64,000 nucleotides of DNA from Whalleya microplaca (lineage: Eukaryota; Ascomycota; Sordariomycetes; Xylariales; Xylariaceae), in contig MU385715.1 in the NCBI GenBank assembly GCA_022497155.1, forward strand, positions 1,302,001 to 1,366,000, given 5' to 3'. The notes below the pieces were generated by a model. That model was not told the DNA's origin and searched no databases. It saw only the letters and a program-made list of their open reading frames with translations. Below, piece by piece: positions 23,778-53,603 of this stretch. A program made the position numbers and the translations under genes. Position 1 is the first letter of the stretch, and each line of letters begins with the position of its first letter.

Positions 23778-23865
23778 TGTCTTAGGACAGGGTATCGGGG
23801 TAAAACGAAAGTAAGATATTAGGTTAAAAATAAGTGTATATTAGCTGCTAAAGCTATCTATATAT

Positions 23866-24154
23866 TGTAATGGGGCAGGGGATTACGGGTATTGACAGCA
23901 GCTTAGGAGCCACTAGAAGCCCCCTGGAGCCACGTTATAGGACACTCCACAGGGTATCCACAGGGCACTCCACAGGGCAATTTACAGTGGATCACATACC
24001 TATATTTAGCTGACCTTTTCCCTCACATCTCCTTTACAACAGATATCACCAGATAGTTAGATAATTACACACACACAGCTTTGGCAGCTGATATACACTT
24101 ATTTTTAACCTAATATCTCACTTTCGATTCACCCTAACACCCTGTCCCAAGACA
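23866..24154 (+). repeat. Solo LTR of the E4 family (289 bp) inside the E4a low-side LTR
   Basis: Starts TGTAATGGGGCAGGGG and ends TGTCCCAAGACA, in the opposite orientation to its host LTR, with target duplication ATAT (23862-23865 and 24155-24158). It is notably richer in CpA/TpG than its surroundings, so it is young or escaped RIP because it is short. With its host LTR it makes an interleaved inverted repeat. Confidence 0.88.
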
Positions 24155-24366
24155 ATATAACTATCTAACTATCTGGTAATATTTATATTAAAAAGTAAAG
24201 GAGATATAAGGGAAAAAGTTAACTAAATATAGGTATATAATTCATTATAAATTGCCTTATAAAGTGCCCTGTGGATACTTTGTGAAATGTTTTATAACGT
24301 AGCTTTAAGGGGCTTTTAATAGCTCCTAAGCTGCTGTTAATACCCGTAATCCCCTGCCCCATTATA

Positions 24367-25358
24367 TCTCTCCCTGATTTTTCAGCTAGCGTCCACGCAG
24401 CTAAAAAATCCAAAAAAAAAAAACAAAAATAAAAACACGCCCCACACTTAAATGCCTAACCTTTAAATCTGAAAAAAAATTTTCACCCTAGGGACCTTAA
24501 GGTAACAGGTTAAATAGCCATAGCTATTAACAGCAGCTAACAGCAGCAGCAACAGGTTAAGTTAGGTAGCCATAGCTTATAGTAAATTAGCAATAAGTCA
24601 GGTAATAACAAATAACAACAAGTTAGCTAGCTATAGCTAGCTACGGCTTTTAATAAGTCAAATAACCACAGCTATTAGCAGCAGTAAGTTAGGTTAGGTA
24701 ACCTCCCTATAAGCCTCCCTAGCAGCTAATAGCAGGTAATAGCAAGTCAGCTAGCCATAGTTAGCCACAGCTTTTAATAAGTTAAATAGCCACAGCTATT
24801 AGCAGTAGTAGCAGCAGCTAATAGCCTCCCTTACTACTAAAAGTAGTATTTAAGTAATAAGGTATATTAGGGTATATAAAAAAATGTTATCCGATATTAT
24901 TGTCTATATAAATTATATACGTATTAATAGCTGGCTACATTTAGCTATATATTAAAAGCATAATTAGCTTATTACTATTGCCTATATAAAATAGACAGGT
25001 TTATATATAAAAATATACGGTCTAATATTTCTGGTATTATTACGTTCTATATTTCTAGTATATAAAAAAAAAATTCGTAAATCGTAAGTAATAAATAACG
25101 TAAATATAATATAAATAAAGTAACTAGCTATTAATTATATAGCTTAATTCGATTTATATAAAAAACAGGTAGCTATCGGATAAAATAAAATATTTGCGTG
25201 CGATATATCGAATAAAAATAAAATAAATCTGACAGTATATATTTTAAGTAACTATTGCTAGTAAATTCTATGCTTCTATAACGTATGGTATAAAAAAGAC
25301 TGTTTTATTCGATTAATTAAAAGGCAAGGAAGTTAAGGCCTGTCCGGAAAGAGCTAAA
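24367..25358 (-). other. E4a interior: hairpin, degenerate tandem repeats, leader
   Basis: On the minus strand, from its 5' end: a leader (25,358 downward) like that of E5, about 700 bp of unassigned sequence, an array of degenerate units rich in CAGCAG and AGCTAGCCA (about 24,500-24,830), a hairpin with near-perfect arms at 24376-24410, and the purine tract before the 3' LTR. No ORF is present in either E4 copy. Confidence 0.7.
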
Positions 25359-25446
25359 TGTCTTAAAATAAAGTATCGGGATAAAACGAAAATAAAATAT
25401 TAGGTTAAAAATAAGTATATATTAGCTGCTAGAGCTATCTATATAT

Positions 25447-25674
25447 TGTTATAAGGCTAGTATGCCGTGGCATATATATATCGCTTGTTTTTTTCTTTTA
25501 CTCTCAGATAAAATATACACAGCTCAGACAGCCTTATTACCGAAAATAGACATATCTCTCCTTTCGATCAGCCGCTATTATAAATAACTCTTTTTGTTTT
25601 ATCGCCTTAATTACCTCCGATCAGTTAAGCTATATAATAGCACCTCCTTTACCCTAACACCTTATCCCAAAACA
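25447..25674 (+). repeat. E5a 5' LTR (228 bp)
   Basis: Starts TGTTATAAGGCTAGTATGCC and ends CCCAAAACA. The interior then begins TTTAGCTCCCCCGG, a segment shared with the E4 leader. Confidence 0.9.
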
Positions 25675-28600
25675 TTTAGCTCCCCCGGATAGGCTTTAAC
25701 TTTTTCGCCTTTTTAATTAATCGAGAAAAATAGTCCAAATAAAGGCAGCAGTAAAATAAAACCAAAAAAAAAAGACTTTAATAAAACCCCTAAAACTACT
25801 AAACTAATTAAACCTATAAAAAAAAAGCACTAACTAAAAAAAAGAACTAACGGTAAATAATTATCTAAAATAAAAAAATAATACCAAAAATAAATAAATT
25901 AATAAAAAAATCTATAAAAAACCTATAATATATATTAATAAACTAGTAATATAAAAATATAAAAATATAAAAAATATAAAATATAGAAAATATAAAAATA
26001 TAGTAATATAAAAATATAAAAAAATATAAGTTCTAATAAAATAAGTTAAATATAAAAAAATTAGTAACACAAAAAATTAAAAAAAATTAGAAAATTATAA
26101 AATATATAGCAAATAATATACGAAAACGTATTATAATTTAGACCTATAAAATAAACTAAGATAAAATTTAGGTAACGAGGATAATATCTAAGCTTTTAAC
26201 TAGCCTATTAGTAATTTTATTACACAATTAATTAATTAATATAATATAATAGCCAGGTTAGCGACTTATTATCGAAATCTTTTTTAAAAGTCTCCTAACC
26301 TTTAAGGCTATTATTAACGTCTTAAAGAACAGTTGTAATTTTATATCTAAAATATTATAAAACTATAACTTAATATAATTAAAAGAAATAAATTATATTC
26401 CTTTAAAATTAAACATAACTAAAGAATTAAAACAGCTAAATAATAAAACATTTTAAATTATACCAAATATAGCTAAAAAAAAATCTCTCCGACCAACCGA
26501 CAATTAAAGAACTATTAACCTTACTACTAATTAAAAACACCAATAAAATAAAAAAAACTCGGTATTATATAGTTAAAATATTTAATCAAAAATAACTAAC
26601 TAAAAGATTTTATCCCTTAATATAACAAAGGACATATAAATTAATAAAAAACTTACGGATTAAAATATAGCTTCCAATTAAAAGCAACTTATTATAACTA
26701 AAAAAACTAGGTTTATAATAATAACTATATTACCAGACTTTCAAAACTACTTATAATTTTTATTTAATAAAAATAATATTACAAATTAAATCGAAAATAT
26801 AACATATATATTCGATAAATACAGCTTAGAAAATAATATTAAAATTAGGGAAATATTATATTAAATAAATAATCAGACTAATAAGCGACAAATCGAAACT
26901 CTATTAAAAAATATTATTATTTAGAAAAAAACAAAGGCAGTTTTAAAGCGATATTTTAAAATTAATAACCTAAAGCAAATAAAAACCCTTATAAAACAGT
27001 TAAAAAACCTAAAAAGAGGTAATAAACTATTTAGACTAACAGAAATTTATTATTATACTTTAAATTATTCGGTTTAAATAAAGAATATCCGGAAACAAAA
27101 GAAAATTAAGAAATAAAACGCTATTTTCGTTAATAATTTATAACAAAAAATCGATTAAAAAGTTATTAAACAGATTATATAATTTTATTCGAAATTATAT
27201 AACAAGCTTTTCGAACTAAATTACAAAAAAGCTTAGAACGTTATATATATATAAGCAAATATTATAATCGGCCTAATAAATTACAATAACCGTAATATCC
27301 GATAGGTTTCGCCTAATCGATAATATAAAAATAAATCGATTAATTATTAACATTCGGTTCGGTTCCGCTTACTATTAATAAGCCTAAAGTAGCTTAAGGT
27401 TATTTTAAAAAAAAAGACTTTATTTTTTTAGCTAAATAAAATAAAGAACTTAATTAAATTTATAAAACAAATATTTATTATATAATTTAAAACTAACGAA
27501 AATTTTATTATATTTATAAAGAAATTTCAATTAATATTACCGAAATTAAAATATTATATCTTATAAAAAAAAACCTCTGCCTAATAAAATATTTAAAAAC
27601 GTAAAGCAAAAAATATATCTTTTAATATTTATTACGCCAGGCCTTTAAATAAAAGAGAAAAATATAAAAGATATAATAGCCGACAAAATTAAAATAGTTA
27701 ATATATATTACAACCGATATTATTTTAAAGGTATAATTAAAATATCTGTTTTTTTTACAAAGAACTAGGCCACTTTTTTATTACTTATTCTTTAATAATG
27801 TCGTTAAGCCGCAACAATATAATATAATATAATAATTAACTTAAGGGATATTTTATCGGAAGTTTTTAAGCTACTCCCGAAATTAGGAATATTTTATTTC
27901 CTAAATATATAATTACCGAAGGCAAAATAAATAAAAAAAGTATTATTTAGGCTTATTTATAATTTTTATATAAAATAAAGGTATACGGTATTTAAATTTA
28001 AAAATTAGCTTACTATTACCTTTATAAATATAGCAAAATCGAAAAAGATATAAAATTTAAATAAAATTATAATTTTATTTAATTAATAATTGATTTATAA
28101 AATCGTAACCTAAAAACAATATTAGCTACAGATTTAAAAGTTAATAATATTGGGATAAAAGGCCTAAAAAGTAACATTTTTTACAAATTTATAAACCTAT
28201 AAAATTATTTTTGGGAGGAACTAATTATTAATAGAAGCGAGAATCTTATATATAAAACAGTAATTAAATTATTTTAATATAAAAATAAGAATAAAATTAA
28301 CGTTTTAATATTAAAGAAGTATAAGAATATAAACAGTAATATATTCGTAAAAAAAACAATCGATCAAATATTATTAAAGCTAAACTTTTTACCTTTAATA
28401 ATTTTAGAGACGCCGAAATAAACCTAGGCTAATATATTAGAAAGTATTATATTTAATTAACTAGCTTTAGCTCTAATTTCGGAATACTAGAAGAAAAAGA
28501 TTTTTAAAAATATAACGAAAAGATTTAAAATCTTATAAGATAATTTAATTAAATACTATACGGGATTTAATAAAGTATTATTTTAATACCTATTTAATAA

Positions 28601-31600
28601 AGCGGGTAAAATAGATTAAAAGCTTTATAAAATAATTTATATCCTTTTAGCCGAAATAATTAATTAGTAGTAATAAAAATAGCAATTTTAATTCAATTCT
28701 ATATTAAGCGTATTATAGCTAATCTTTACGCCTAATAAATTCTAAAATAGCCTTATAAATATATTAATTAATAATATTTTTATAATACCCGGTAACGTTA
28801 CCCAGATTATTATAGTATTTCTGCCGGTATTTATCCGGGATATTAAAATATATATCTAACTATTGCTTTAATTAACTATAAGAATTAGTTTTAAAGAATA
28901 TAAAAACTTAATTACTATAGTTATTAATACGGGTATTTAATTAAATATTATTATATAATTATACGTTTTTAAATATTAAATATTTATATAAAAAATTAAA
29001 ATTACATAATTTAGTTTTAATATATTAGTAAATAATAAAACTAAAAGCTTTAGCTTAATTAAAAGACCTATATAATTAGTAAGCTATAATTTACCGCTAC
29101 CGATTTATATAGTTAAAAATTTTAAAGCTATATTCCCGTTATTTTTCGGCTTTAATTTTATTTTTTAATTACATATAATAATTTACCCTAAAAAAGGCTT
29201 ATTAATAGCTTCGATATTTTTCGGAAATATTAAAATTATAGTACCCCTTATATATAATAAGCTAATTAAGCAAACTTTAGCTAACGTTATTAATCTTTCG
29301 GAAAATTAATAACTGCCGATATTAAGGGCTAAATTAATAGTAAATAAAAGCTTTAAAATATTACAGTAATAATAAATCTAATAAAATTTAAAAGTATAGT
29401 TTAAAATAACTTAAGTTTAAAATAAATCGGTAAACGGATAGAAATTATTATTAATAAAATATTTTAAAATAGCAATTAAATATAAGTCTCGCTATTTAAT
29501 AATTATTTACTAGGCCTATTACGGAAAACTATTAAAAAAAATTTAAATAGATAATATAGCGTTTAATATTATATCGTAAAAAAATATTACGGAAAAACGA
29601 AATTAAGTTATATATAATATATAAATTAAAAATACAAAAAATTTACTTAATCGATAATACCGAATTAAATAGTATAATTTTTTTAAAGTCGATTAATTAG
29701 AAGCAAGCAATATTATAAAATATAAAGCCGAATTTCGAACTCTAAAATATATCTAAAATAAATAAAAAATATAAGAATATTATTTCGCGTTTTGTTTCCG
29801 TACCGCGAAATATTAAATTAACGAAAGAACGTTTAAATATTATTAAAATAAAGCTGCTAAATATAAAATTTATAAATTAAAAAAAAGTAATATTAATTAA
29901 GATTTTTTATTAACAAAAAATAACATTAGCTTAAGACTTTATAAAAATCGGCCGAATTAAAAAAAAAGTGTTTTTTTTATATAAGATTAAAATAATATTA
30001 TATAATATATAATAAGCTAAATTAATTTTTATTTTAACGTTACTAAAGATATAAGTTTTAAATATTTTATAAAGTCGGCTTAAAAATAAAATATTAGAAG
30101 AATTTTATATTTTATATTATAATATTTAGTTTATAGTTAAGAAAAAAAATAGAAGTTTTCGGTTAATTAATTTAGTTATAAAATTAAACGTTATATAAAT
30201 ACAAGACGCTTTTTTTCCGAGTAATTGTAATAAATTTGCGGAGGAATTTGTTATATAAATAATGATTTTTATAATAGATTTTTTTTTAGGATATAATTAA
30301 ATATTATTATCTATATTTAGTAAAGATTATATTATATTTTCGACGCCAATCGGGCTTTTCCGGATAACGATTTTATTATAAAGAGGGACTAATTCGGTAG
30401 TATAATTTTTATATATTATTACCCGGATTTTATTTAACTTTATACCCGATAAATACAAGCTATTTTTTAATAATATTAATATTAAAGAGCTAAAAACAAA
30501 ATACAATAATTAAGAAATTATATTAAAAATAAAATAATTTATTTATAAACATTTAAAAAATATCAATAATATTTTATTTAATTTTAAACTAATAAGAACT
30601 ATAGCTAATACAGAAAAAAGCAATTAATATAAAAATGCTACCGTTATTATCAGCTATTTATATAGTACTAATAATTATTCTCCTAATTAGACTAAAGTTA
30701 TTAAAATTATAAAATAGGTACCTTATAATAATATTTTTAAAATACAGGCATTTTTTAGAAATTATAATTTATTATTATATATAAATTATATATTATACGT
30801 TAATTATTTTATTACTAATAAAATTTTTCCGGAAAAACGCAAATTAAAAATAGGAAATAAAATAATAATAAATTATAAATAAACTTAAAATAGCGTTAAT
30901 TAATATACCCTATTTAATTACGCTCGATTATATAAACGGATATATTATTGGGCTTAAAATTAATACGTTAAGCATTAAATAAAAATATATATTAAAATAA
31001 GAAATTAATAAATACATTTAACTTATAAAGTTTAAATTTAATATATAAAAAGGGCTAAAATTTAATTACGATATTACAAAACAAAAATATCTCGGAATAA
31101 TTAAGTCTTTTTAATAATTATAAAATTACTTTTATAGCATAAGATTTATTCTCGAAACTAATATTAAAGTTTTAATTACTTAATTAAATAATAAATTCTC
31201 TAGCTTACTTAACGCGATATTAACCTAATAAATAACTTTTATTAAAATATTTAATTTCGAAATAAAATATATCCCTAAAAAACGATATTAAATAGTAAAT
31301 AATTTATTATACAAACTATTAAAGCCGTCCGATAAACTAGATAATTAATAGAAAAAAAAATCGACAATTTTATTAATATCTAATTTAATATTCTTATAAC
31401 AAGAATACTTTAATTAAATAAACTAATATAAAAAATACCGGAATTCTCCCTACTACTTATTATTTTATATCCGCTAAAAAACTAATTTAAAGCTTCTTAA
31501 AAAATCGTAATATATCTTAATACCCTAAAATTACTTAATTAACTAAAAAATTCTAATATAATAAAATAATATTATACGAAAGCAAGCTTCCGGAATAAAG

Positions 31601-32790
31601 CTATTAAATACGTAATTTAAAAAAGAATTTTATAGCGGAAACCTTATAAAAAATATAGCTAATAATATATTATTAATAATATTAATTAATAAAAACGTAT
31701 TATTAAAAACTACTACTCGAGAATTAAAACGTATCGAAAACGTAAATCGATTTATAATAAAATAATTAAATTTTATTATTAAAAAAGGATATATTAAAAA
31801 ATTTAAACTGCCGTTAAATATTGCCTAAAATGCTAGCCTTTTACAAATAGACAATTTAAAAATTAAGGACTTTTTTTAACGCTAAAATAATTACTAACTA
31901 CTTAAATTATTAATATTTAATTTTTCCCGAATAATAATAAATATTCGGCTATTATCGAAACAAAAAATAAACTATTAGGGTAGCCTAAAATTAAGGCACT
32001 AAAAAATACTATAATAACTAAGGTATAAAAGTTCCTTTAAGACTATATTTATACTAATTATAGTATTTTTATAATAATTAAATGTAATAAAGGCTTAGAA
32101 AATAAGGCAAAGGTAGCTAAAAATGCTATATAGCTAAGTATTAAAATATAAGTCGGACTTATATATTACCTTCAGATATAAAAATAAATAAAAATAAGCT
32201 ATTAACCGATTATAAGATTTTTTATACGTATAACGGAAAAAATTAGTAAATTATAAATTAAAAAGTTTAAAATTATATTTTAAGCTAATCGAATATTTAT
32301 ATAAAAATATAAATTTATATTATATAAATTAGTCTATAATAAAAAACTTATTATACCGATCGAAATAGTTTTATTATTTTAGCGAGTTTTTAATTAGTCG
32401 GATATTTATAATAAAAAAGATTTTATTTTTAAAAAAGTAAAGATATTTAAACAATAGAACAAAAATATCGCGAAAATAGTATAGATTTTAATAAAAAAAC
32501 GAAAAAAAGCGGCGGAACAAAATAATTAATAATACCTATTAAAAAAACGGTTAAAACTATTAAAATAAGGCAGCTTAATTTTATTTTATAATATAATACG
32601 AGATATCGATATATTTAAAAATAAGAAACTAAAATATAAATAAACTAAGCCCTATCGAATTACGAAAAAATAAAAATAAAACAGGTTTTTCTTTAAAAAA
32701 TTAAACGGGGTAATATTATAAGGAATATTTTTTTCTAATCGACTAAAAAGATTTATTCGAGATATAAAAAGGTACTAGAAACTTAGCAAA
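25675..32790 (+). pseudogene. E5a gag-pol relic
   Basis: Gag-like sequence fills about 25,700-28,500. Retropepsin is near 28,800-29,200 with INTG in place of DTG (Asp to Asn by RIP). Reverse transcriptase spans about 29,900-30,600: RLIN followed by DAFFPSNCNKFAEEFV, then IDFFLGYN and TPIGLFRITIL are readable, and the catalytic box reads FFNN. RNase H follows to about 31,600. Integrase is at about 31,680-32,780: a Cys-Cys zinc motif with one Cys kept, a GLENKAK segment where active copies would read GPENKAK, and the C-terminal NRLKRFIRD segment. The RLIN...DA...SxDEF...IDFFSGY pattern belongs to a known fungal Ty3/gypsy-type lineage. All frames are broken. Confidence 0.75.
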
Positions 32791-35700
32791 CCTTATAATA
32801 ACTATTAGTTAAGTGGCTATAATAAAATAAAAAATAATTAAGAAAGCCTTAAACTAGCAGACAATAATATATTATATTAAAATAAAAATATATAAAAAGG
32901 CCCGATAATTTATAGCCAGATTAAAAAGGTCGAGTCTAATAAAAATTAAAAAATTATAAAAAATAAAATACCTAAAAGAATAATTAAAATCAGACTATCT
33001 GGAATATTATTAGCGGAGCGAAAAACCTATAATCAAATATTAAAAAAATAGTATTAATAAATTAGATTATTTTTCTTTACGTTTTATATAAATTAACATT
33101 TTATAAAAATAAAGTTTTATAAAGTTACAGCAAATATAAAAAAGTAATAAAAAAAAAGCTTAAATTAAAAAATATAACCGCAAACTTTAATATATAACTA
33201 ATTAATTAAACAAAAGAAATTATCGCGAGCTATAAATAAAACTGCCTACAATTTCGGTAAAAAAAACAGATTTTTTTAGTAATTTAGCCTAAATATATAT
33301 TACCTATAAAACGACTTATTAAAACAGAATTATTATAATTAATATCGCTATTAAAAAAAAAATCTTTTAATTAATAAGCTTATAAATACGTATATTTTTT
33401 ATCCCGGAACAAATATTTATTTACTTAAATACCGACTATATAATTCCTATATAAACTCCCGAATCAGCCTTTTATTAATCGATATTTATAAAATAGCTAT
33501 ATTTTATTATAGCGCCTATTTTTAAAACCAACAAACCGATTTTTATAAAGCTAGCAAAAGACTTTATTATAGGTATTATATTTCTAAATAAAAACTTCAA
33601 ATTATATACGGCAATTTTTAATTAAGCGAAACATTAAGTTATTAATAAGGTTAGTTTTATAAATCTTAATAAAAAAAGGGTATTATTAATCGAAAAGGTA
33701 TTTCGTTACCTTAAAATATTTAATATATTTTAAGGCAGGCTTTTATATTTAATTTTTACAATAAAATTTCGAGGCTATAAATTCCTAAATATAATACCGA
33801 TTTTCCTTAAAACTATTAAGAAGTTTAATTTCTATTAGTCAAATTATCTTATATTAATTAATAAAAATTATATATATTAGATAAAAAAGGAATTTACCCG
33901 GATAAACTTATTTATTATATTAGCTTTTAAAAAGTAGCGGCTTATATTATTTTTCCAAAATTAAAGCAGCTTATTTTTATTAATCTTTAAATTAAAGCGA
34001 TTAGATTTAATATTAAAATAGAAACTAAAAATACAATTAACGTTTTTTACTATCAAATTAGGAGTTTTCGATCGCTTAAAAACGATAGACCTAAAATATA
34101 AAAAAAGCTTAACGCTAAGGTATAAATTAATAGGAGAAAAAAAATAACGAAAATCCCTAGCTATTTATATAGCCGATTTACCTATTTTAAAAAGGAAGTA
34201 ATAATAAAATAAAACGGGATAAAAAAATCGAGAAAGAAAATTACAGAAACTAAGGTTATTTTAATAAAATTTAATTCGATTAAATAGCGGGAGTTTAATA
34301 CCTGCTTTACAAGTTTTAAAAGGAGGATTACCGATACACGTTTTATCCTAAATATTTATTAAATTTTAACAAACTATTATAACCCGATAAAAGCGTTTAA
34401 AGTTATTTAGTTTTTAATTAACGCTATTATAATAAAAGATTTAACTCCTAAATATAGAACCTTTTATAAAAAAGAAAGGAATAAATAACTTATATAAAAG
34501 CCTAATAAAAAAAGTTCCCTTTTTTCCTTTCTGCCCCTTATATAATAACAAGTTTTACGATATAATTATAAATAATTAATTAAATAAATACTATAAAGCA
34601 AAAATAAAGAATAAATAGTTAGGTTAGTAATTATTAAAAGGAAAAAAAGGTATAAAATATAAGAATAAAATAAATAAAGGGTATAACAAGTAGCCTAGAA
34701 AACGTATTAAAGCTAAATCGAATAAGCCGACTTTTAAAATTAGTAATAACGACTTAAATGCTTTATTATATTTAATATCTAGTTTATTATAAGTTTAAAT
34801 AACTAATTAAAAATAGAAAGGACTTTTTAATTTACTTTTATTTATTACAAATTAAAACCTGGCGTAAAAAAGTTTTTTTTATACTAATTTACTAATAACT
34901 TTTATCTAATTATTTATTAACTTTTTTCCCTTATTTTTTATCGTTTTTAATTAATTAGTTCAGTTTTTTTATAGTTTTATATTACCTTATTATTATAGTA
35001 TTATATTTTAAACCTTACTTTTTATATATTAAAATGTCGTTATAGCTATTATAGTTTAAGAAGTTACCTAAAAAGAAAAAAAATAAGTATAAGAATTGGA
35101 ATAAGAATAAAAAAGTTAATTAAGTAGCCCGTAAGAACCTTAAGCCTATTTTAAAAGCTAATATTAAGTTTGAGGCTGTATTTAAAAATGAGGCTAAAAT
35201 TAAGTTTGCGGCTAATTCCGACCTTAAATATAAGGCTGGAATAACCTTACCTACTAGTTCGCTTTTATAAAAATAGCTTCCCTTTTTAGATTTTAATATA
35301 TTTATTATAATAGCTAATATTAATTTTTATATTATTAATTAATTTTGCGGCTTTTTTATTAAAATATACGGACTTAAATTTTAGATTAAGAATAAGCTAT
35401 AACATTTAAAACAAGAGATTAAATAGATTGTCGATTTTTTAAAAATAGATTTTTTGTTAGTTAGAAGCAATAAAATACCTAAAGTTACCTTTAATCGAAA
35501 CGCCCCTTCTAATTATAATAAAAATAAATAAAAAGTAAATAAAGTATTAAGCTTATATAATGCTTTTTTTGCTTATTATAAGCGTTAATATTACAATATT
35601 ACTTTTATGGCTATTATAATTTAAATAAGTATTGCTACTTTTAAGGAAGGATTTATTAAAACGGAGGTTTACTTTAGGACTATTATAAAGCTTAATTAAG

Positions 35701-36695: not shown

Positions 36696-36703
36696 AGGAA
36701 GGA

Positions 36704-36931: not shown

Positions 36932-37147
36932 ATATAACTATTTAACTATCTAATAATATCTATATTAAAAAGTGAAAAAGATATAAGGGAAAAAGTCAGC
37001 TAAATATAGGTATATAATTTACTGTAAATTGCCTTATAAAGTGCCCTATAAATACCTTGTGGAGTACCTTGTGACATAGCTTTAGGGGGCTTTTAATAGC
37101 TCCTAAGCTGCTGTTAATACCCGTAATCCCTTGCCCCATTACAATAT

Positions 37148-40691: not shown

Positions 40692-40917
40692 TGTTATAGG
40701 GCTAGTATGCCGTGGTATATATATATCGCTTGTTTTTTTTTTTACTCTTAGATAAAATATATATAGCTTAAACGGCTTTATAGCCGATAATAGATATATT
40801 TTTTCTTTCGATTAATCGCTATTATAAGTGACATTTTTATTTCGTCGCCTTGATTATTTCCGATTAATTAAGCTATAAAGTGGTACTTTTTTTACCCTAA
40901 TACCCTATTTTAATATA
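40692..40917 (+). repeat. E5b 5' LTR (226 bp)
   Basis: Starts TGTTATAGGGCTAGTATG and ends TTTTAATATA, a RIP form of the family terminus. The interior begins TTTAGCTTTTCCGG. Confidence 0.88.
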
Positions 40918-43900
40918 TTTAGCTTTTCCGGATAGGCCTTAATTTCTTCGCCTTTTTAATTAATCGAGAAGAATAATCTAAATAAAGGCAGTAATAAAAT
41001 AAGATTAAAAGAGAAGAACTTTAATAAAACCTTTAAAACTACTAAATTAATCGAACTTATAAAAAAGAAGCACTAACTAAAAAAAGAACTGACAGTAAAC
41101 AATTATTTAAAATAAAGAAATAATGCTAAAAATAAATAAATTAATAAAAAGATTTATAAAAAACTTATAATATATATTAATAAGTTAGTAATATAAAGAT
41201 ATAAAGATATAGAGAATATAAAGTATAAAAAATATAAGAATATAGTAATACGAAGATATAAAAAAGTATAAGTTTTAATAAAGCAAGTTAAATATAAGAA
41301 AATTAGTAGTACGAAAGATTAGGAAAAATTAGAAAATTATAAAGTATATAGTAAATAATATATAAAAACGTACTACGGTTTAAATCTATAGGGTGGATTA
41401 AGGTGGAATTTAGGTAACGAAAATAATATCCGAGCTTTTAACTGGCTTATAAGTAATTTTGTTACGCGATTAATTAATTAATATAATATAATAGCTAGGT
41501 TGGCGATTTATTATTGAGATTTTTTTTGAAAGTTTTCTAACCTTTAAGGCTATTATTAGCGTCTTAAAAAATAGTTATAATTTTATATCTAGAATATTAT
41601 AAAATTACAACTTAATATAATTAAAAAGAATAAAATGTATTCCCTTAAAATTAAGTATAAATAAAGAATTAAGATAGCTAGATAATAAAATATTTTAAAT
41701 TATATTAAATATAGCTAAAAAGAGATTTTTCCGACTAACCGATAATTAAGGGATTATTAACTTTATTATTAATTAAAAGTACCGTTAAAATAAGAGAGAC
41801 TCGGCATTATATAATTAAAATATTTAATTAGAAATAATTAGCTAAAAGACTTTATTTTTTAATATAACGAAAAATATATAAGTCGATAAAAAGCCTATAA
41901 ACTAAAATATAGCTTCCGATTAAAAGCGACTTACTATAACCGGAAGAACTAGGTTTATAGTAATAGCTATATTATTAGACTTTCGAAACTACCTATAGCT
42001 TTTATTCGATAAAAATAATATTATAGATTAAATCGAAAATGTAATATATATATTCAATAGATATAGCTTAAAAAATAATATTAAAATTAGGGAAATATTA
42101 TATTAAATAAATAACCAAATTAATAAGCGATAAATCGAAATTTTATTAAAAGGTATTATTATTTAGAAAAAAATAAAGGTAGTTTTAAAGCGATATTTTA
42201 AAATTAGTGATTTAAAATAAATAAAAACTTTTATAAAACGGTTAAAAAACCTAGAAAAAGGTAATAAATTATTCGGATTAATAGAGATTTATTATTATAT
42301 TTTAGATTATTTAATTCGGGTAAAAGATATCCGGAAATAAGGGAAAATTAAAAAATAAGACGTTATTTTTATTAACAGTTTATAGCAAAAAATTAATTAA
42401 AAAGTTATTAAGCGGATTATATAGTTTTGCTCGAAATTATATAACGAGCTTTTCGAACTAAATTACGAAAAAGCTTAAAACGTTATATATATATAGGCGG
42501 ATATTATAGTCGGCCTAATAAATTATAATAGCTATAATATCCGATAGGTTTTACCCGATTGACTGTATAAAAATAAATCAGTTAATTATTAACGTTTAAT
42601 TTGGTTTTATTTATTATTAGTAAGCTTAAAATAGCTTAAAGTTATTTTAAAAAAAGAGATTTTATTTTTTTAGTTAGATAAAATAAAAAATTTAATTAAG
42701 TTTATAAAATAAATATTTATTATATAGCTTAAAGCTAACGAAAATTTTATTATATTTATAAAAAAACTTTAATTAATATTACTAAAATTAGAATATTATA
42801 TTTTATAAAAAGAAACTTTTGCTTAATAAAATGTTTAAAAACGTAAAGTAAGAGATGTATTTTTTAATATTTATCGCGCCGGGCTTTTAAATAAAAAAGG
42901 AGAATATAAAAGGTATAATAGCCGATAAAATTAAAATAGTCGATATATATTATAACCGATATTATTTTAAAGGTATAATTAAGATATTTGTTTTTTTTAT
43001 AGAGAATTAAGCCATTTTTTTATTACTTATTTTTTAATAGTATTATTAAATCGCGATAATATAATGCGATATAATAATTAATTTAGGGGATATTTTATCG
43101 GAAGTTTTTAAGCTATTTCCGAAATTAGAAATATCTTATTCTTTAGGTATATAATTACCGAAAGTAAAATAAATGGAAAAAATATTATTTAAGCCTACTT
43201 ATAATTCCTATATAAAATAAAGGTATGCGGTATTTAAATTCGGAAATTGGCTTATTATTACCTTGATAAATATAATAAGATCAAAAAAAATATAAAATTT
43301 AAATAAAACTATAATTTTATTCGATTAATAGTTAATTTATAAAATCGTAACCCGGAAACGATATTAGCTATAGATTTAAAAGTTTATAATATTAAAATAA
43401 GGGGCTTAAAAAGTAATATTTTTTATAAATTTATAAACTTATAAGATTATTTTTAGAAGGAACTAATTATTAATAAAAGCGGGAATTTTATATATAAAGT
43501 AGTAATTAAATTATTTTAATATAAAAGTAAAAATAAAATTGACGTTTTAGTATTAAAAAGGCATAAAAATATAAATAGTAGTATATTTGTAAAAAGGACG
43601 ATTAATAAAGTGCTATTAAAGCTAAACCTTTTATTTTTAATAGTCTTAAAAACGCCGAAATAAATCTAGGCTAATAAGCTAGAAAACATTATACCTAATT
43701 AATTAATTTTAGCTTTAATTTCGGAATATTAAAAAAAAAGATTTTTAAAAATGCAGCGAAAAGATTTAAAGTCTTATAAGATAATTTAATTAAATATTAT
43801 ACGGGATTTAATAAGGCATTATTTTAATACCTATTTAATAAAGCGGGTAAAATAAGTCGAAAGTTTTATAAAACGATTTATGTTTTTTTAGCCGAAATAA

Positions 43901-44228
43901 TTAATTAGTAGCAATAAAAATAATAATTTTAGTTTAATTTTATATTAAACGTATTATAGCTAGTTTTTACGTCTAAAATATATCGATTAATAATATATTT
44001 ATAATATTTAATAACGCTACCTAGATTATTATAGCACTTTTGCCGGTATTTATCCGGGATATTAAAGTATATATCCGACTATTACCCCGATTAATTATAA
44101 GAATTAGCTTTAAAAAATATAAGAACTTAATTATTACAATTATTAATACGGGTATTTAGTTAAATATTATTACGTAATTATACGTTTTTAAATATTAGAT
44201 ATTTATATGAAAAATTAAAATTATATAG

Positions 44229-44539
44229 TGTTTTAAAATAGGGTGTTAAGGTGAAGCGAAAGTGAGATATTAAGTTAAAAATAAGTGTATATAGTTACTA
44301 AAGCTATTTATATATAACTATTTGGGAATATTTGTGGTAAAAAAGTGAAGGAGATATAAGGGAAAAGGTCAGCTAAATATAGGTATGTGATCCACTGTAA
44401 ATTGCCTTATGGAGTGCCCTGTGGATACCTTGTGGAGTGCCCTGTGAATACCTTGTGAAGTGCTTTATGACGTGGCTCTAGGGGGCTTTTAGTGGCTCCT
44501 AAGCTGCTGTTAATACCCGTAATCCCCTGCCCTATTACA
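44229..44539 (-). repeat. E4b 3' LTR (311 bp)
   Basis: Plus strand reads TGTTTTAAAATAGGG at the low end and CTATTACA at the high end. On the element's own strand it is preceded by the purine tract AGGGAGGGA (44540-44548). Confidence 0.88.
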
Positions 44540-44549
44540 TCCCTCCCTG

Positions 44550-44582
44550 ATTTTTCAGCTAGCGTTCACGTAGCTGAAAAAT
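44550..44582 (-). other. Hairpin next to the E4b polypurine tract
   Basis: Perfect 12-bp arms (ATTTTTCAGCTA and TAGCTGAAAAAT) with a 9-nt loop. The equivalent hairpin in E4a (24376-24410) keeps its fold despite changed bases. It lies directly upstream of the purine tract on the element's strand. Confidence 0.65.
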
Positions 44583-44676
44583 TAAAAAAAAAAAAAAATT
44601 GAAAACACGCCCCACACTTGAATGCCTGACCTTCAGATCTGAAAAAAAAAAATTTTCACCCCAGGGACCTTAGGGT

Positions 44677-44860
44677 AACAGGTCAGATAGCCACAGCTAT
44701 CAGCAGCAGCAGCAGGTCAGGTGACAACAGGTCAGCTAGCCACAGCTATCAGCAGCAGCAGGTGGTCAGGTGACAACAGGTCAGCTAGCCACAGCTAGCC
44801 ACGGCTTTCAACAGGTCAGATAGCCACAGCTATCAGCAGCAGCAGGTCAGGTCAGGTGAC
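44677..44860 (-). repeat. Tandem repeat array in E4b
   Basis: Four units of about 35-50 bp, each starting AACAGGTCAG on the plus strand and containing TAGCCACAGCTA and usually CAGCAGCAG runs, ending GGTGAC. E4a has a degenerate, longer version at about 24,500-24,830. Confidence 0.75.
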
Positions 44861-45431
44861 CTCCCTGTAAGCCTCCCTAGCAGCTGATAGCCTCCCTTGC
44901 TGCTGAAGGTGGCATTCAAGTGATGTGGTGTATTAAGGTGTGTAAAAGTGTCATCCGATATCGTTATCCATATAAATTATATACGTATTAATAGCTGGCT
45001 ATATCTAGCTATATACCAAGCATAATTAGCTTGTTATTATTGCCTATATAAAATAGACAGATTTATATATAAAAATATACGGTCTAGTGTTTCTGGTATT
45101 ATCGCGCTTTATATTTCTAGTATTTTGGTATATAAAAAAAAGAAAATTTGTAAATTGTAGGTAATAAGTGACGTAAATGTAATATAGATAAAAACAGCTG
45201 GCTGGCCATCGATCGAATATATAGCTTAATTCGATTTGTATAAAAAATAAGTGGCTATTAAATAAAATGGAATGAAATAATTCGCGTGCGAAAGTAAGTT
45301 TAATAGTAGATATACTTTAAGTAACTATTGCTAGTGAATTCTATGCTTCCGTAATATATAATATAAAAGACTATTTTTGCTCGATTAATTAAAAGGCAAA
45401 GAAGTTAAGGCTTGTCCGGGGGTAAGCTAAA

Positions 45432-45742
45432 TATTTTAAGACAAGGTATTAAGGTAAAGCGAAAGTAAGATATTAAGTCAAAAATAAGTATATATAGCTA
45501 CCAGAGCTATCTGTATATAACTATCTGGTGATATCTGTGGTAAAAAAGTGAAGGAGATATAAAGGAAAAGGTTAGCTAAATATAGGTATATAATTTACTA
45601 TAAATTGCCCTGTGGAATGCCCTGTGGATACCCTGTGAAATGCCCTGTGGATACCCTATGGAGTGCTTTATGACGTGGCTTCAGGGGGCTTTTAGTGGCT
45701 CCTAAGCTGCTGTTAATACCCGTAATCCCCTGCCTTATTACA
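45432..45742 (-). repeat. E4b 5' LTR (311 bp)
   Basis: Same length as its partner. On the plus strand its low end reads TATTTTAAGACAAGG (RIP form of TGT...) and directly follows the leader shared with E5. Confidence 0.88.
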
Positions 45743-48700
45743 ATAGTCCGGCTTTAATATATTAGTAAATAATAAAACTAGAAGCTTTAGTTTAATCGAA
45801 AAACCTATATAATTAGCAAGCTATAATTTGCCGCTACCGATTTATATAATTAGAAATTTTAAAGCCGCATTTCTGTTATTTTTTAGCCTTAATTTTATTT
45901 TTTAATCGTATATAATAATTTATCCTAAAAAAAGCTTATTAATAGCTTCGATATTTTTCGGAAATATTAAGATTATAATATCCTTTATATATAATAAATT
46001 AATTAAGCGAATTTTAGCCGACGTTATTAATCTTTTAGAAAACTAATAACTGCCGATATTAAAAGCTAGGTCGATAGTAAATAAAGGCTTTAAAATATTA
46101 CGGCAATAATAAACCTAGCGAAATTTAAAAATATAATTTAAAATAACTTAAATTTAAAATAAGTTAATAAATAAATAGAAATTACTATTAATAAGATGTT
46201 CTAAAATAGCGATTAAATATAAGCCTCGCTATTTAATAATTATTTATTAGGCTTATTATAAGAAATTATTAAAAAGGAATTTAAATAAATAATATAGCGT
46301 ATAATATTATATTATAAAAAAATATTACGGAAAAACGAAATTAAGCTATATATAATATATAAATTAAAAGTATAAAAAGATTAATTAGTCGATAATGCTA
46401 AATCGGATAATATAGTTTTATTAAAGTTAATTGATTAAAAGTAAGCAATATTATAAAATATAAAGCCGAATTTCGAACCCTAAAATATATTTAAAATAAA
46501 TAAAAAATATAAAGGTATTATTTCGTGTTTTGCTTTCGCGCCGCAAAATATTAAATTAACGAAAGAACGCTTAGACATTATTAAAATAAAGCTACTAAAT
46601 ATAAAGCTTATAAATTAAAAAAAAGTAATACTAATTAAGATTTTTTATCGATAAAAAATAATATTAGCTTAAAATTTTATAAAAATCGGCCGAATTAAAA
46701 AAAAAGTATTTTTTTTATATAAAATTAAAATAATACTATATAATATATAGTAAGCTAAATTAATTTTTATCTTAGCGTTACTAAAAATATAGGTTTTAAA
46801 TATTTTATAAAATTAGTTTAAAAATAAAATATTAGAAAAATCTTATACCTTATACTGTAACGTCTAGTTTATAATTAAGAAAAAAAATAAAAACTTTGGG
46901 TTAATTAATTCGGCTATAAAATTAAACGCTATATAAATATAAAACGCCTTTTTTCCGAATAATTGTAATAAATTTGCGGAGAAATTTACTATATAAATAA
47001 TAATTTTTATAATAGACTTTTTTTAAAATATAATTAAATATTATTATTTATATTTAACAAAAATTATATTATATTTTTAACGCCGATTAGGCTTTTCCGA
47101 ATAATAGTTTTGTTATAAGGAGGGACTAATTTAGTAATATAATTTTTACGTATTATTACCCGGATTTTATTCGATTTTATACCCGATAAGTGCGAGCTAT
47201 TTTTTAATAATATTAGTATTAAAAGGTTAAAAATAAAATATAATAATTAAAAAATCGCACTAAAAATAAAACGATTTATTTATAAATATTTAAAGAATAT
47301 TAATAATGTTTTATTTAATTTTAAACTAGCGGGAGTTATAGCTAATATAGAAAAAAGCAATTAATATAAAAACGCTGCCGTTATTATCGGCTATTTATAC
47401 AGTATTAATAGTTGTTTTCCTAATTAAGCTAAAGTTATTAAAATTACAAAATAAATACCTTATAATAATATTTCTAAAGTGCGGGCATTTTTAAAAATTA
47501 TAATTTATTATTATATATAAATTATATATTATATATTAATTATTTTACTACTAATAAAACTTCTCCGGAAAAACGTAAATTAAAAATAGGAAATAAAATA
47601 ATAGCAAGTTATAAATAAACTTAAAATAATATTAATTAATATACCCTATTTAATTATACTCGATTATATAAATAGATATATTATTTAATTTAAAGTTAAT
47701 ATGTTAGATATTAAATAAAGATATATATTAAAATAAAAAATTAATAGATACGTTTAATTTATAAGGTTTAAATCTAGTATATAAAAAGGGCTAAAACTTA
47801 ATTACGATATTATAAAACAAAAATATCTCGGGGTAGTTAAGTTTTTTCGATAATTGCGAAATTACTTTTATAATATAAGATTTATTTTCGAAACTAATAT
47901 TAAAATTTTAATCGCTTAATTAAATAATAGATTTTCTAGCTTATTTAACGCAACATTAACCCGGTAGATAGCTTTTATTAAAATATTTAATTTCGAAATA
48001 AAATATATTCTTAAAAAATAATATTAAATAGCGGATAGTTTATTATATAAACTATTAAAGCTATCCGATAAATTAAATAATTAATGGGAAAAAAAGTCGA
48101 TAATTTTATTAATATTTAGCTTAATATTCTTATAATAAAAATACTTTAATTAAATAAACTAATATAAAAAATACCGGAATTTTTTTTACTACTTATTATT
48201 TTATACCCGCTAGAAAACTAATTTAAGGTTTCCTAAAAAGTCGTAATATATTTTAATGATTTAAAATTACTTAATCGACTAAAAAGTTTTAATATAACGA
48301 AATAATATTATACGAAAGTAAGTTTCCGGAATAAAGCTATTAAATACATAATTTAAAAGGGAATTTTATAGCGGAAACTTTATAAGAAATATAGCTAATA
48401 GTATGTCGTTAATAATATTAATTAACGAAAACGTATTATTAGGGACTATTACTCGAGAGTTAAAATATATCGAGAACGAAAATCGATTTATAATAAAATA
48501 ATTAAGTTTTATTACTAAAAAGAGATATATTAGGAAATCGTAATTGCTATTAAGTATTGCTTAAAATGCTAGCTTTTTGCGGATAGACGATTTAAAAATT
48601 AAAGACTTTTTTTAACGCTAAAATAGTTATTAACTATTTAGATTATTAATATTTAATTTTTCCCGAATAATAATAAATATTTAGCTATTATTAAAGCAAA

Positions 48701-49480
48701 AAATAAATTATTAAAGTAGTCTAAAATTAAAGCACTAAAAAATGTTATAATAATTAAATATAATAAAGGCTTAAAAAATAAGGCAGAAATAGCTAAAAAT
48801 ATTATATAGTTAGGTATTAAAATATAAATTAGACTTATATATTACTTTTAGATATAAAGATAAATAAAAGTAAGTTATTAACCGATTATAAAATCTTTTA
48901 TATATATAACGGGAGAAATTAGCAAATTATAGGTTAAAAACTTAAAGCTATATTTTAGGCTAATTAAATATTTATATAAAAATATAAGTTTATATTATAC
49001 GAATTAATTTATAATAAAAAATTTATTATGCCGATCGAAATAGTTTTATTATTTTAGTAGGTCTTTAATTAGTTGGACATTTGTAATAAGGAAGATTTTA
49101 TTATTAAAAAAGTAAGGATATTGAAATAATAAGATAAAAATATTACGAAAATGGTATAAATTTTAATAAAGAAACGAAAAAAAGCGGCGGAATAAAATAA
49201 TTAATAATACCTATTAAAAAAACAGTTAAAACGATTAAAATAAAATAGCTTAGTTTTATTTTATAATATAATATAAAATATCGATATATTTAAAAATAAG
49301 AAGCTAAAATATAAATAAACTAAACTTTATTAAATTACGAAAAAACAAAAATAAAATAGGTTTTTTTTAAAAAAATTAAACGGGGTAATATTATAAGAAA
49401 TATTTTTTTTTAATTGACTAAAAAAATTTGTTTAAAATATAAAAAGGTACTGGAAATTTAATAAACCTTATAATAACTAT

Positions 49481-52400
49481 TAATTAAGTGGCTATAATAA
49501 AATAAGGGATAATTAAAAAAGCGCTAAACTAATAAATAATAATACGTTATATTAAAATAAAAATATACAAAAAAGTTTAATAACCTAAAGTTAGATTAAA
49601 AAAGTCGAGCCTAATAAAGATTAAAAAATTGTAAGAAATAAAATACCCGAAAAAACAATTAAAGTCAAACTATTTAAAATATTATTAGCGGAATAGGAAA
49701 TTTATAATCGAGTATTAAAAAAATAATACTAATAAATTAAATTATTATTTTTTTACGTTTTATATAAATTAATATTTTATAGAAATAAAGTTTTATAAAG
49801 TTATAAAAAATATAAAGAGGTAATAAAAAAAAAGCTTAAATTAAAAAATATAATTATAAATTTTAGTATATAATTAATTAATTAAATAAAAGAAATTATT
49901 ACAAGCTATAAATAAAGCCGCTTATAATTTTGGTAAAAAAAATAAATTTTCCTAATAGTTTAGCTTAAATATATATTATTTTTAAAACGACCTATTAAAT
50001 TAGAATTATCGTAATTAATATCGCTATTAAAAAAAAATCTCTCGATTAACAAGCCTATAAATATATATATTTTTTATTCCGGAATAAATATTTATTTATT
50101 TAAATACCGACTATATAATTTTTATATAAACTTCCGAATTAGTTTTTTATTAATTAATATTTATAAAATGGCTATATTTTATTATAGCGTTTATTTTTAG
50201 AACTAACTAATTAATTTTTATAAAGCCGGTAAAAAATTTTATTATAAGTATTATATTTCTAAGTAAAAACTTTAAATTATATACGGCAATTTTTAATTAA
50301 GCGAAATATTAAGTTATTAATAAGGTTAGTTTCGCGGATTTCGATAAAGAAAAAATATTATTAATCGAAAGGGTATTTCGTTATTTTAAAATATTTAATA
50401 TATTTTAGGGCAGGCTTTTATATTTAACCTTTATAATAAAATTTCGAGGCTATAAATTCCTAAATATAATACCGACTTTTTTTAAAACTATTAAAGAGTT
50501 TAATTTTTATTAATTAAATTATTTTATATTAATTAGTAAAAGTTATATATATTAAATAAAAACAAGACTTACCCGGATAAATTTATTTATTATATTAGCT
50601 TTTAAAAAATAGCGGCTTATATTATTTTTCCAGAATTAAAGTAACTTATTTTTATTAATCTTTAAATTAAAGCGATTAGGTTTAATGTTAAAATAGGGAT
50701 TAAAAATATAATTAACGTTTTTTATTATCGAGCTAAAAGTTCTCGATTGCTTAAAAACGGCAAATTTAAAACACCAAAAAAGTTTAATATTAAAGTATAA
50801 ATCGATAGAAAAAAAGAAATAATAAAAATCCCTAGCTATTTATATAGCCGATTTACTTATTTTAAAAAAAAAGCGATAATAAAATAAAACGGAATAAGGA
50901 AGTCGAAAAGAAAGATTACAAAAACTAGGGTTATTTTAATAAAATTTTACTCGATTAGAAAGCGGGGGTTTAATACTTATTTTATAAGTTTTAAAAAGAA
51001 AATTGCCGATATACGTTTTATTCTAGATATTTATTAGATTTTAACGAATTATTATAACCCGATAAAAATATTTAAGGTTATTTAGCTTTCGATTAACGTT
51101 ATTATAATAAAGGATTTAATTTTTAAATATCAAACCTTTTATAAAAAAAAGGGAATAGATAACTTATATAAAAGCCTAATAAAAAGAATTCTTTTCTTTC
51201 TTTTTTGTTTTTTATACAATAAAAAATCTTACGATATAACTGCGAATAATTAATTAAGTAAATATTATAAAGCGAAAATAAAGGACAAATAGTTAGGTTA
51301 GTAGTTATTAAAGGAAAAAGAGGGTATAAAATATAAAGTTAAAATAAATAAAAGATATAATAAATAGCCTAAAAAATATATTAAAGCTAAATCGAGTAAG
51401 CCGACTTTTAAAATTAGTAATAACGACTTAAATGCCTTATTATATTTAATATCTGGCTTATTATAAGTTTAAATAATTAATTAAAAATAAAAAGGACTTC
51501 TTAATTTACCCTTATTTATTATAAATTAAAACCTGGCGTAAAAAGTTTTTTTTATACTAACTTACTAATAACTTTTATTTAATTATTTATTAATTTTTTG
51601 CCCTTACTTTTTATCGTTTTTAATTAATTAGTTAAGGTTTTTTATAGCTTTATATTAATTTATTACTATAGTATTATATTTTAAACTTTATTTTTTATAT
51701 ATTAAAATGTCATTATAACTGTTATAATTTAAAAAGTTACCTAAAAAAAGGAAGAATAAGTATAAAAATCGGAATAAAAATAAAAAAATTAATTAAGCGG
51801 CCCGTAAAAACCTTAAGCTTGTTTCGAAAGCTAATATTAAATTTGAGGCTATATTTAAAAACGAGGCTAAAATTAAGTTTACGGCTGATTCTAACTTTAA
51901 ATATAAGGCTAAAATAATCTTATCTACTAGTTCGTTTTTATAAAAACAGTTTCCTTTTTTAAATTCTAGTATATTTGTTATAATAGCTAATATTAACTTT
52001 TATATTATTAATTAATTTCGCGGCTTTTTTATTAAGATATATAGATTTAAACCTTAGATTAAGAATAGGTTATAATACTTAAAATAAAAGATTAAATAAA
52101 TTATCGATTTTTTAAAAACGGATTTCTTATTAGTTAGAAGCGATAAAGTATTTAAAGTTATTTTTAATTAAAACGCCTTTCCTAATTATAATAAAAATAA
52201 ATAAAAGGTAAATAAAGTATTAAGTTTATATAATGCTTTTTTTGTTTACTATAAGCATTAATATTATAATATTATTTTTATAGCTGTTATAATTTAAATA
52301 AGTATTACTACTTTAAAAAAAAAACTTATTAAAACGGAAATTTACTTTAGGACTACTATAAAGCTTAATTAAAAGGTTATATAAATTAACGACTAATTTT

Positions 52401-53370
52401 TTTTTCGGATTATTTTAAATAATTTCCGGTTTTTTATATTAACGGTATTTATATATTTACGTAACCCTATAGCTACTAACGTTAAAAAAAGGTAGCCTTT
52501 ACTTTTTTTTAATTATTATATTAGTAAAAACTTATATTACTTTTTTATTTAATTTTATAAATATTTATAGTAAAAAAAAAACTCGGGCTACTTTTAATCG
52601 ATTACGTTAGGTCTAAATTTAATAAAACAACATAACTCCTATTTATATTAAACTTATTTAAATAGTATAATAATAAAATAGGTTTAATTGCGGCTTTTAA
52701 ATAGCTTATTTAATTTTTCGCTTTTTTTATTCCCCTACTATATTTTTTCGCTTTTATAAAAATCCTTATTTTATTAACAAAAAACGAGAAATAAAAAGCT
52801 AAATGACGAAAATGAAGCAAATAATAATTTATAAGGTTATTAATTAACCCGATAGCTTTTATAAACTAAAACGAAAACCTAAATTTAAATTTACTTTTAC
52901 TTTTAGTCTATTTTAAGCGAAAAGGATATCCTAACGTTAGTTTAAGCTATATAAAGTTTATATAGATTTTTTAACTTTTAATTAATAATAACCTTTTATA
53001 AAAAAACGATAAAAAGCTGTTTATTAAAATAGGAAAGCTTATATTTTATATAAATAGGTAAAAGATAAGTTTACCGCGTTAAAAAAACGGCTATAATTTA
53101 CTTTTCCTATAGAACAAAATAGTTAGGCAGATTACGAAAGATATATAGCTATTATTAATCGATAAAGAATTCCTTTTTTTACTAAGCCTAATTAATTAGA
53201 ACGTATAAAACGACGTAGGTTTATTAAAAAGTATATGGAATTAAATAAAAAAAAAGGGCAGTTAAATTTGAGGCAAAAATTTTTAAAAAGTAAATAAGGT
53301 AGATATTTTTTACGTTTGTATTAATTAATTAGATTTTTTTATAATAAAAATATTTATAATAAAATCTAGG
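49481..53370 (+). pseudogene. E5b post-integrase region with the same possible third ORF
   Basis: Counterpart of 32791-36695 in E5a. The ATG at 51707 corresponds to the one at 35034 and is followed by the same basic segment and the same reading frame. Only RIP-type differences separate the copies, so the comparison neither proves nor excludes coding. Confidence 0.45.
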
Positions 53371-53375
53371 AAGGA

Positions 53376-53603
53376 TATTATAGGGCTAGTGTGCCGTAAT
53401 ATATATATATCGCTTGTTTTTTTTTTTTTACTTTTAGATAAAATATATATAGCTTAGATAGCTTTATAGCCGATAATAAATATATCTCTTCTTTCGATTA
53501 ATCGCCGTTATAAGTGACATTTTTGTTTCGTCGCCTTAATTACTTCCGATTAGTTAAGCTATAAAGTAGCACCTCCTTTACCTTAACACCCTGTCCCAAT
53601 ATA
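53376..53603 (+). repeat. E5b 3' LTR (228 bp)
   Basis: Starts TATTATAGGGC (RIP form of TGTTATAGGGC) and ends GTCCCAATATA. Followed by the target repeat ATAA and then E3 reverse transcriptase codons. Confidence 0.9.

What the first reader, a model, noticed from the sequence alone, without database searches (positions are those of the whole stretch)
23778..53603. E4 looks like a miniature parasite of the large E5 family: shared leader, U5 end, polypurine tract and target rule
On its own (minus) strand E4 has LTRs starting TGTAATRGGG and ending like E5 (ACCCTAACACCCTGTCTTAAGACA-type end). Its leader matches that of E5 over about 50 bases (TTTAGCT...CCCCCGG, then the CTTAACTTCTTCGCC-like segment). 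Its tract AGGGAGGGA abutting TGTAATRGGG resembles AGGAAGGA abutting TGTTATAGGG in E5. The rest is unrelated and non-coding. This is what is expected of an element retaining only the cis signals for priming, packaging, plus-strand synthesis and integration by E5 proteins.
Basis: partly seen in the sequence, partly recalled or inferred. Interest (0 to 1): 0.85.

Follow-up and report, generated by a model that had tools for sequence, protein, structure and literature searches.

The report
Tiny retrotransposon riding a larger one
A 1.5-kilobase non-coding jumping element in a fungal genome carries the same start, end and insertion signals as an 11.5-kilobase element that once coded for the copying and insertion enzymes, so it most likely spread by borrowing that element's proteins.

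Summary
E4 is a non-coding LTR element of about 1.5 kb; E5 is an 11.5-kb Ty3/Gypsy-type LTR element. Both are repeated in the genome and RIP-mutated. No other similarity exceeded shuffles. Twenty further leader sites sampled were all E4 or E5. Some E5 copies carry an integrase zinc domain and E5a a weak Ty3 RT/RNase H match. LTR pairs differ almost only by transitions, and the families are nested in each other. Mobilisation of E4 by E5-type proteins is the best reading. Co-occurrence in other species, the priming tRNA, E5 gag and the host's name remain open.

The parts
44229..45742 (-). E4 copy 2, complete TRIM-like element nested in E5b; 5' LTR 45432-45742, 3' LTR 44229-44539; CTAT duplication 45743-45746 / 44225-44228
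45370..45431 (-). E4 copy 2 primer-site region and leader (shared block, together with the last ~28 nt of the 5' LTR)
44549..44583 (-). E4 copy 2 stem-loop abutting the purine tract
44540..44548 (-). E4 copy 2 purine tract AGGGAGGGA directly before the 3' LTR
23778..37143 (-). E4 copy 1, ATAT duplication 37144-37147 / 23774-23777; 5' LTR 37143-36932 plus 25446-25359 (split by E5a), interior 25358-24367, 3' LTR 24366-24155 plus 23865-23778 (split by a solo E4 LTR)
25297..25358 (-). E4 copy 1 primer-site region and leader
23866..24154 (+). solo E4 LTR inside the 3' LTR of E4 copy 1, ATAT duplication; sits at the base homologous to the E5a insertion in the other LTR
25447..36931 (+). E5a, Ty3/Gypsy-type element; LTRs 25447-25674 and 36704-36931; ATAT duplication 25443-25446 / 36932-36935
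25675..25736 (+). E5a primer-site region and leader
36657..36696 (+). E5a stem-loop abutting the purine tract
   Evidence: 19 of 20 other copies
36697..36703 (+). E5a purine tract GGAAGGA before the 3' LTR
30749..31192 (+). E5a stretch matching Ty3 reverse transcriptase/RNase H (4ol8) weakly, X at each stop
   Evidence: E = 0.019
31693..31836 (+). E5a integrase zinc domain (PF17921), below cut-off here; over the cut-off in eight other E5 copies; a different frame from the RT stretch
40692..53603 (+). E5b, with E4 copy 2 inside; ATAA duplication 40688-40691 / 53604-53607
40920..40980 (+). E5b primer-site region and leader
53329..53375 (+). E5b stem-loop (53329-53368) and purine tract (53369-53375)

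Best explanation
E4 is a TRIM-like non-autonomous LTR retrotransposon that moved by using the proteins of E5, a Ty3/Gypsy-type element in the same genome. Shown: E4 is non-coding; the two LTRs of an element are copies of one template; it makes 4-bp NTAN duplications as E5 does; and it shares with E5 only the U5 end, primer-site region, leader, the purine tract with LTR start, and a stem-loop abutting the tract. Inferred: E4 RNA was packaged in E5 particles, primed at the shared site, second-strand primed at the shared tract, and inserted by E5 integrase. RIP then inactivated the copies seen.
For: Block shared with abrupt borders: purine/pyrimidine identity between families 0.937 over the 62-nt leader (0.938 within E4) and 1.000 over 22 U5 columns, against 0.556 and 0.545 in the adjoining columns (48 and 40 copies). 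89.7 bits against at most 41.0 in 100 shuffles. Target rule: TA at positions 2-3 in 37 of 41 and 27 of 27 (E4), 35 of 36 and 5 of 5 (E5), 7 of 19 (E1). 4-bp duplications perfect in 17 of 21 E4 elements and 11 of 12 E5 copies compared. Sampled leader sites: 20 of 20 are E4 or E5. Integrase zinc domain over the cut-off in eight E5 copies (paired by hand). LTR pairs of 20 E4 elements: 758 transitions, 16 transversions in 6,197 sites. E4 in E5 and E5 in E4.
Against: No RNA, particle or transposition data. No gag or protease recognised in E5 and no protein homologue found; RVT_1 gave no hit at E5 places I could recognise; the RT stretch and the integrase domain of E5a lie in different frames. The junction pattern at the purine tract is only 288 against 116 in its reversed control. 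The copies were picked by an expression that itself spells part of the block, which raises the values inside it. Primer complementarity is short. Other species could not be examined.
Confidence: 0.82

Rival explanations
1. E4 was mobilised by a sister lineage of E5 with the same termini and leader, now lost or not sampled, and not by E5 itself.
For: E4's LTR body and interior are unrelated to E5's, so E4 need not descend from E5; 88 of 188 leader sites were not listed and only 20 unassigned ones were fetched.
Against: 20 of 20 sampled sites are E4 or E5. E4 and E5 leaders are as alike as E4 leaders among themselves. One E4 copy, L070, has an E5-like leader. Both were active over overlapping periods.
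Confidence: 0.12
2. E5 is itself non-autonomous (a large passenger), and a third, unseen family supplied the proteins for both.
For: No gag, protease or intact frame was found in E5; E5 is long for a Gypsy element.
Against: Integrase zinc domain over the cut-off in eight E5 copies at a constant place and a Ty3 RT/RNase H match just before it (weak).
Confidence: 0.05
3. The likeness is convergent: both use the same tRNA and similar LTR ends by chance.
For: A primer site can be shared by unrelated families that use one tRNA.
Against: The shared block is about 90 nt, far beyond a primer site, and includes the integrase end; 89.7 bits against at most 41.0 in 100 shuffles. Duplication length and target rule agree too.
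Confidence: 0.01

Closest known systems
RLG_Cereba / RLG_Quinta of Einkorn wheat (PMC11302176; abstract and passages seen)
   Same: An autonomous and a non-autonomous Gypsy family that share LTR termini, primer site and purine tract, proposed as a cross-mobilised pair on the same kind of evidence
   Different: Quinta still codes for GAG and shares half of its LTR with Cereba; E4 codes for nothing, shares only ~28 nt of U5 and the LTR start, and its host is a fungus with RIP
TRIMs of plants and animals (PMC6934838, passages; PMC4717578 and others, listings)
   Same: Small non-coding LTR elements with a purine tract and primer-site region, dependent on proteins of others
   Different: PMC6934838 gives under 1000 bp and terminal repeats of 100-250 bp; E4 is about 1.4-1.9 kb with ~300-nt LTRs. 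Partners are often unknown there
TRIMs and LARDs in fungi, e.g. Venturia inaequalis (PMC4646964, passages)
   Same: Non-coding LTR elements in a RIP-active ascomycete
   Different: No named autonomous partner in the passages seen
Rolly and other LTR retrotransposons of Leptosphaeria maculans (named in PMC2973834 and PMC4646964, passages)
   Same: RIP-affected LTR retrotransposons in AT-rich blocks; Rolly's similar large size is recalled, from no call
   Different: Identity of this host, or of E5 with Rolly, was not tested; [quoted passage not shown] maculans

Membership tests
TRIM (E4) | two LTRs from one template, flanking a short interior, with a target duplication | tested here: met
   20 LTR pairs, 16 transversions in 6,197 sites; 17 of 21 elements with a perfect 4-bp duplication, 4 with three of four
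TRIM (E4) | no coding capacity | tested here: met
   22 interior rows (one of them twice, L001 and W): longest ORF 13-96 aa, mostly below the mean of shuffles; L002 (96 against 63) and L019 (81 against 59) exceed it, with no frame kept across copies
TRIM (E4) | purine tract before the 3' LTR | tested here: met
   26 junctions printed
TRIM (E4) | primer-binding site complementary to a tRNA | tested here: inconclusive
   TGGCTC 2 nt after the LTR fits the CCA ends of tRNA-Asp and tRNA-Glu for 6-8 nt; internal matches to other tRNAs are as long; 60 of 61 listed tRNA genes compared
TRIM (E4) | size under 1000 bp, terminal repeats 100-250 bp (as in PMC6934838) | tested here: not met
   about 1.4-1.9 kb with ~285-335-nt LTRs; hence 'TRIM-like'
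Ty3/Gypsy (E5) | Gypsy-type integrase with H2C2 domain | tested here: met
   PF17921 over its cut-off in eight E5 copies; below it in E5a
Ty3/Gypsy (E5) | Ty3-type RT/RNase H lying before the integrase | tested here: inconclusive
   E = 0.019 to 4ol8; no Pfam RT match
Ty3/Gypsy (E5) | gag and protease; placement of RT in a tree | tested here: inconclusive
   no Pfam match in RIP-broken frames; tree not attempted
autonomous/passenger pair (criteria as in PMC11302176) | same primer-site region, same LTR termini, shared by no other family | tested here: met
   20 of 20 sampled sites; the census is incomplete

The most novel reading that the evidence does not exclude
Mobilisation of a Gypsy passenger needs, besides a ~90-nt U5-primer-leader block kept letter for letter up to RIP transitions, a stem-loop that abuts the purine tract and is shared as a shape: both families have it with the same outermost bases (GATTTT...AAAATC) but unrelated inner stem and loop. 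It would be a plus-strand-priming or packaging signal read by structure. An E4 copy (L070) carries an E5-like leader, as template switching in shared particles would leave.
Probability: 0.3. Interest if true: 0.65.

Novelty: new member of a known kind. Interest (0 to 1): 0.5.

Why it matters
Partners of miniature LTR elements are often not found (PMC6934838, passages). Here the pair can be read off one genome: RIP makes transitions, so the purine/pyrimidine pattern, transversions and target duplications still report what was constrained. The pair outlines a minimal cis set for passenger mobilisation in a fungal Gypsy element and points to a tract-abutting hairpin to test. In the papers listed (listings, with passages from some) I saw no fungal miniature LTR element with a named autonomous partner; the library lacks most subscription papers.

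Tried and rejected
Tf1-like self-priming: the longest LTR/leader complement is hardly longer than with shuffled leaders (E4 6.21 against 5.73, E5 5.55 against 5.50; 29 copies each). Among the best eight listed per family, CCTGTCC 14 nt before the LTR end against GGACAGG in the leader appears in 2 E4 and 1 E5 copies: a possible U5-leader stem around the primer site.

tRNA priming by a long 3' match: not found among 60 fetched of 61 listed tRNA genes (63 of 1,595 candidates had been scored). A first pattern for a matching tRNA 3' half gave 0 hits.

E4 as a simple internal deletion of E5: rejected, LTR bodies and interiors are unrelated.

Wider folding: the 160 nt before the E4 3' LTR do not fold unusually well as a whole (z = -1.76, 9 of 200 shuffles as good); the claim rests on the local stem and its place.

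Host identification by assembly size: no match; the assemblies in PMC6219404 (41, 33, 288, 606 and 156 sequences; passages) do not match 114 contigs. Two gene-rich stretches were fetched for this and not used. Protein homologues of an E5 stretch: none at E <= 1. E5 3' part: no Pfam match.

E4 at contig ends first looked like a telomere link; six ends read are breaks at the E4 T-run and hairpin region.

mis-sorted leaders by family; only one search is used (its label E4 for L072 conflicts with LTR BLAST; one of 88 rows). Its count of a 2-nt leader insertion returned zero because of a faulty expression and is not used.
Full report
Setting. The window is C6:1302001-1366000 of a 48.1-Mb genome in 114 contigs. 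[quoted passage not shown] I take the host for a filamentous ascomycete; the species was not identified.

Anatomy. E5a (25447-36931) and E5b (40692-53603) are LTR elements with ~228-nt LTRs. E4 copy 2 (44229-45742, minus) is complete inside E5b. E4 copy 1 (37143 down to 23778, minus) is split by E5a in its 5' LTR and by a solo E4 LTR in its 3' LTR. E5a and the solo E4 LTR sit at homologous bases of the two LTRs of E4 copy 1, each with an ATAT duplication (23778-23871 aligns with 25359-25452). An E5 and an E4 insertion thus picked the same base.

Copies. E4 gave 84 match pieces from 40 scored of 307 first-look candidates; E5 5' ends gave 40 from 40 scored of 301. The tool calls such counts lower bounds.

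What is shared. E4 against E5a gives one match above chance: 92 columns over the U5 end and leader, 89.7 bits; 100 shuffles of E4 gave at most 41.0. I compared 48 leaders labelled E4 and 40 labelled E5 (one label doubtful) with transitions ignored, because RIP makes them. Between families the median identity is 0.937 in the 62-nt leader and 1.000 in 22 U5 columns (7 to 28 nt before the LTR end). The 18 columns before that give 0.556 and the 21 columns after the leader 0.545. Within E4 the leader value is 0.938. The copies were picked by an expression that spells part of the block, which raises the inside values; the listing by LTR BLAST shows the same leaders. The leader pattern has 188 genome hits and none read backwards. 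Of the 100 hits listed I fetched 20, chosen by hand as not yet assigned: all 20 have E4 or E5 U5 sequence upstream. One, L071, leaves the E4 sequence inside the leader, perhaps a nested insertion.

3' side. E4 has AGGGAGGGA before TGTAATRGGGC, E5 has AGGAAGGA before TGTTATRGGGC. The looser pattern for this junction hits 288 times against 116 for its reversed control, weak by itself. In both families a stem-loop abuts the tract. In E4 the outer arms are perfect in 16 of 26 junctions, the others differing mostly by changes that look like RIP. In E5 19 of 20 fetched copies fold with 14-15 pairs ending 5-7 nt from the LTR, at only -3.2 to -9.6 kcal/mol; L206 folds otherwise. The one E1 copy folded shows no such stem. 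The outer GATTTT and AAAATC are common to both, the inner parts are not.

Target rule. The four bases before the LTR have TA at positions 2-3 in 37 of 41 E4 starts and 35 of 36 E5 starts; the four bases after it in 27 of 27 E4 ends and 5 of 5 E5 ends. Three of the 41 E4 starts follow E4's own interior, so are 3' LTR starts sorted wrongly, and probably make up three of the four exceptions. E1 has 7 of 19 (one of 20 copies gave no clear start). Background TA frequency is 0.16. Duplications, E4: of 25 rows, two are wrong pairings; of the 21 complete elements 17 are perfect over 4 bp and 4 have three of four; two solo LTRs are perfect. E5, read by hand: 14 copies had the 3' flank fetched, 12 could be compared, 11 identical, one differing by C/T; the two window copies agree. 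E1 has a 5-bp duplication in the one copy with both ends.

Movement. LTR pairs of 20 E4 elements differ by 758 transitions and 16 transversions in 6,197 sites, 8 of the 16 in one element; 13 pairs have none. Transversion distance between different E4 copies (median 0.016, 16 copies) exceeds that within elements (0.0026). Both LTRs of an element thus come from one template, as reverse transcription gives, and insertions look young apart from RIP. The E5a and E5b pairs show no transversion. E4 interiors show no convincing ORF. Flanks place E4 in E5 (L001, the window copy; L013; L016 on one side) and E5 in E4 (L002, L014, L037, L043); E4 also lies in E1 (6 of 38 upstream flanks). Activity overlapped, but nesting is not specific to the pair.

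E5 as supplier. The H2C2 integrase zinc domain is over its cut-off in eight places that fall 6.24 kb from an E5 5' end or 5.25 kb from an E5 3' end (C2:895165, C3:12909, C41:240797, C43:5812, C80:95630, C87:49288, C98:49354, C102:23574; hits paired by hand); all eight hold stops. In E5a it is below the cut-off. A Ty3 RT/RNase H match lies before it (30749-31192, E = 0.019), in another frame of E5a. No gag or protease was recognised, and RVT_1 gave no hit at E5 places I could recognise.

Priming. In little-mutated copies the leader starts TTTGGCTC. TGGCTC two bases after the LTR fits the CCA end of tRNA-Asp and tRNA-Glu for 6-8 nt, but internal matches to tRNA-Ala, -Ser and -Thr are as long. 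The primer stays open. Tf1-type self-priming is not supported.

Mosaics. E4 copy L070 has the E5 state at three of four diagnostic leader sites; E5 copy L085 has the E4 state at two. Template switching in shared particles would do this; RIP and small numbers leave doubt.

Verdict. It is a new case of a known kind (compare Cereba/Quinta, PMC11302176), in a fungus, with an unusually clean outline of the shared cis signals.

Noticed in passing
G000 contig ends, e.g. L061-L066: 24 of the 100 listed E4 junction sites lie within 350 nt of a contig start or of a contig end of known length; six ends read break in the E4 T-run/hairpin/interior or just beyond, so E4 seems to break this assembly.
   Followed up: partly
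14018-21512 and 59483-64000: A second Gypsy-type family (E1) with RVT_1 and integrase zinc hits, 5-bp duplication ATTAC, LTR start TGTAATGGGCTG; used as control.
   Followed up: partly
53668-53926 and 55830-56088: A pair of ~259-nt direct repeats 2.2 kb apart, 83% alike, possibly another small LTR element or two solo LTRs.
   Followed up: no
L071 (C25:323170-323600): E4 LTR and start of the leader, then unrelated sequence beginning GTCACGTG: a nested insertion or a different interior behind an E4 LTR.
   Followed up: no
E4 leader copies and L075 (an E5): Many E4 leaders carry a 2-nt insertion after TTTRGCTY (TTTRGCTTACTCCCGG type); the E5 copy L075 has it too, another hint of exchange between the families.
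   Followed up: no
G000:C76:79526-79678: An integrase zinc domain in an open 486-aa frame without stops, unlike the RIP-broken ones: a possible intact retroelement or a host gene.
   Followed up: no
44660-44900 (minus), E4 interior: G+C-richer repeated units (CTGACCTGCTGCTGCTGATAGCTGTGGCTAG-like) in the E4 interior and CACAGGGYAYTC-like units in its LTR (read) may cause the length differences between copies.
   Followed up: no
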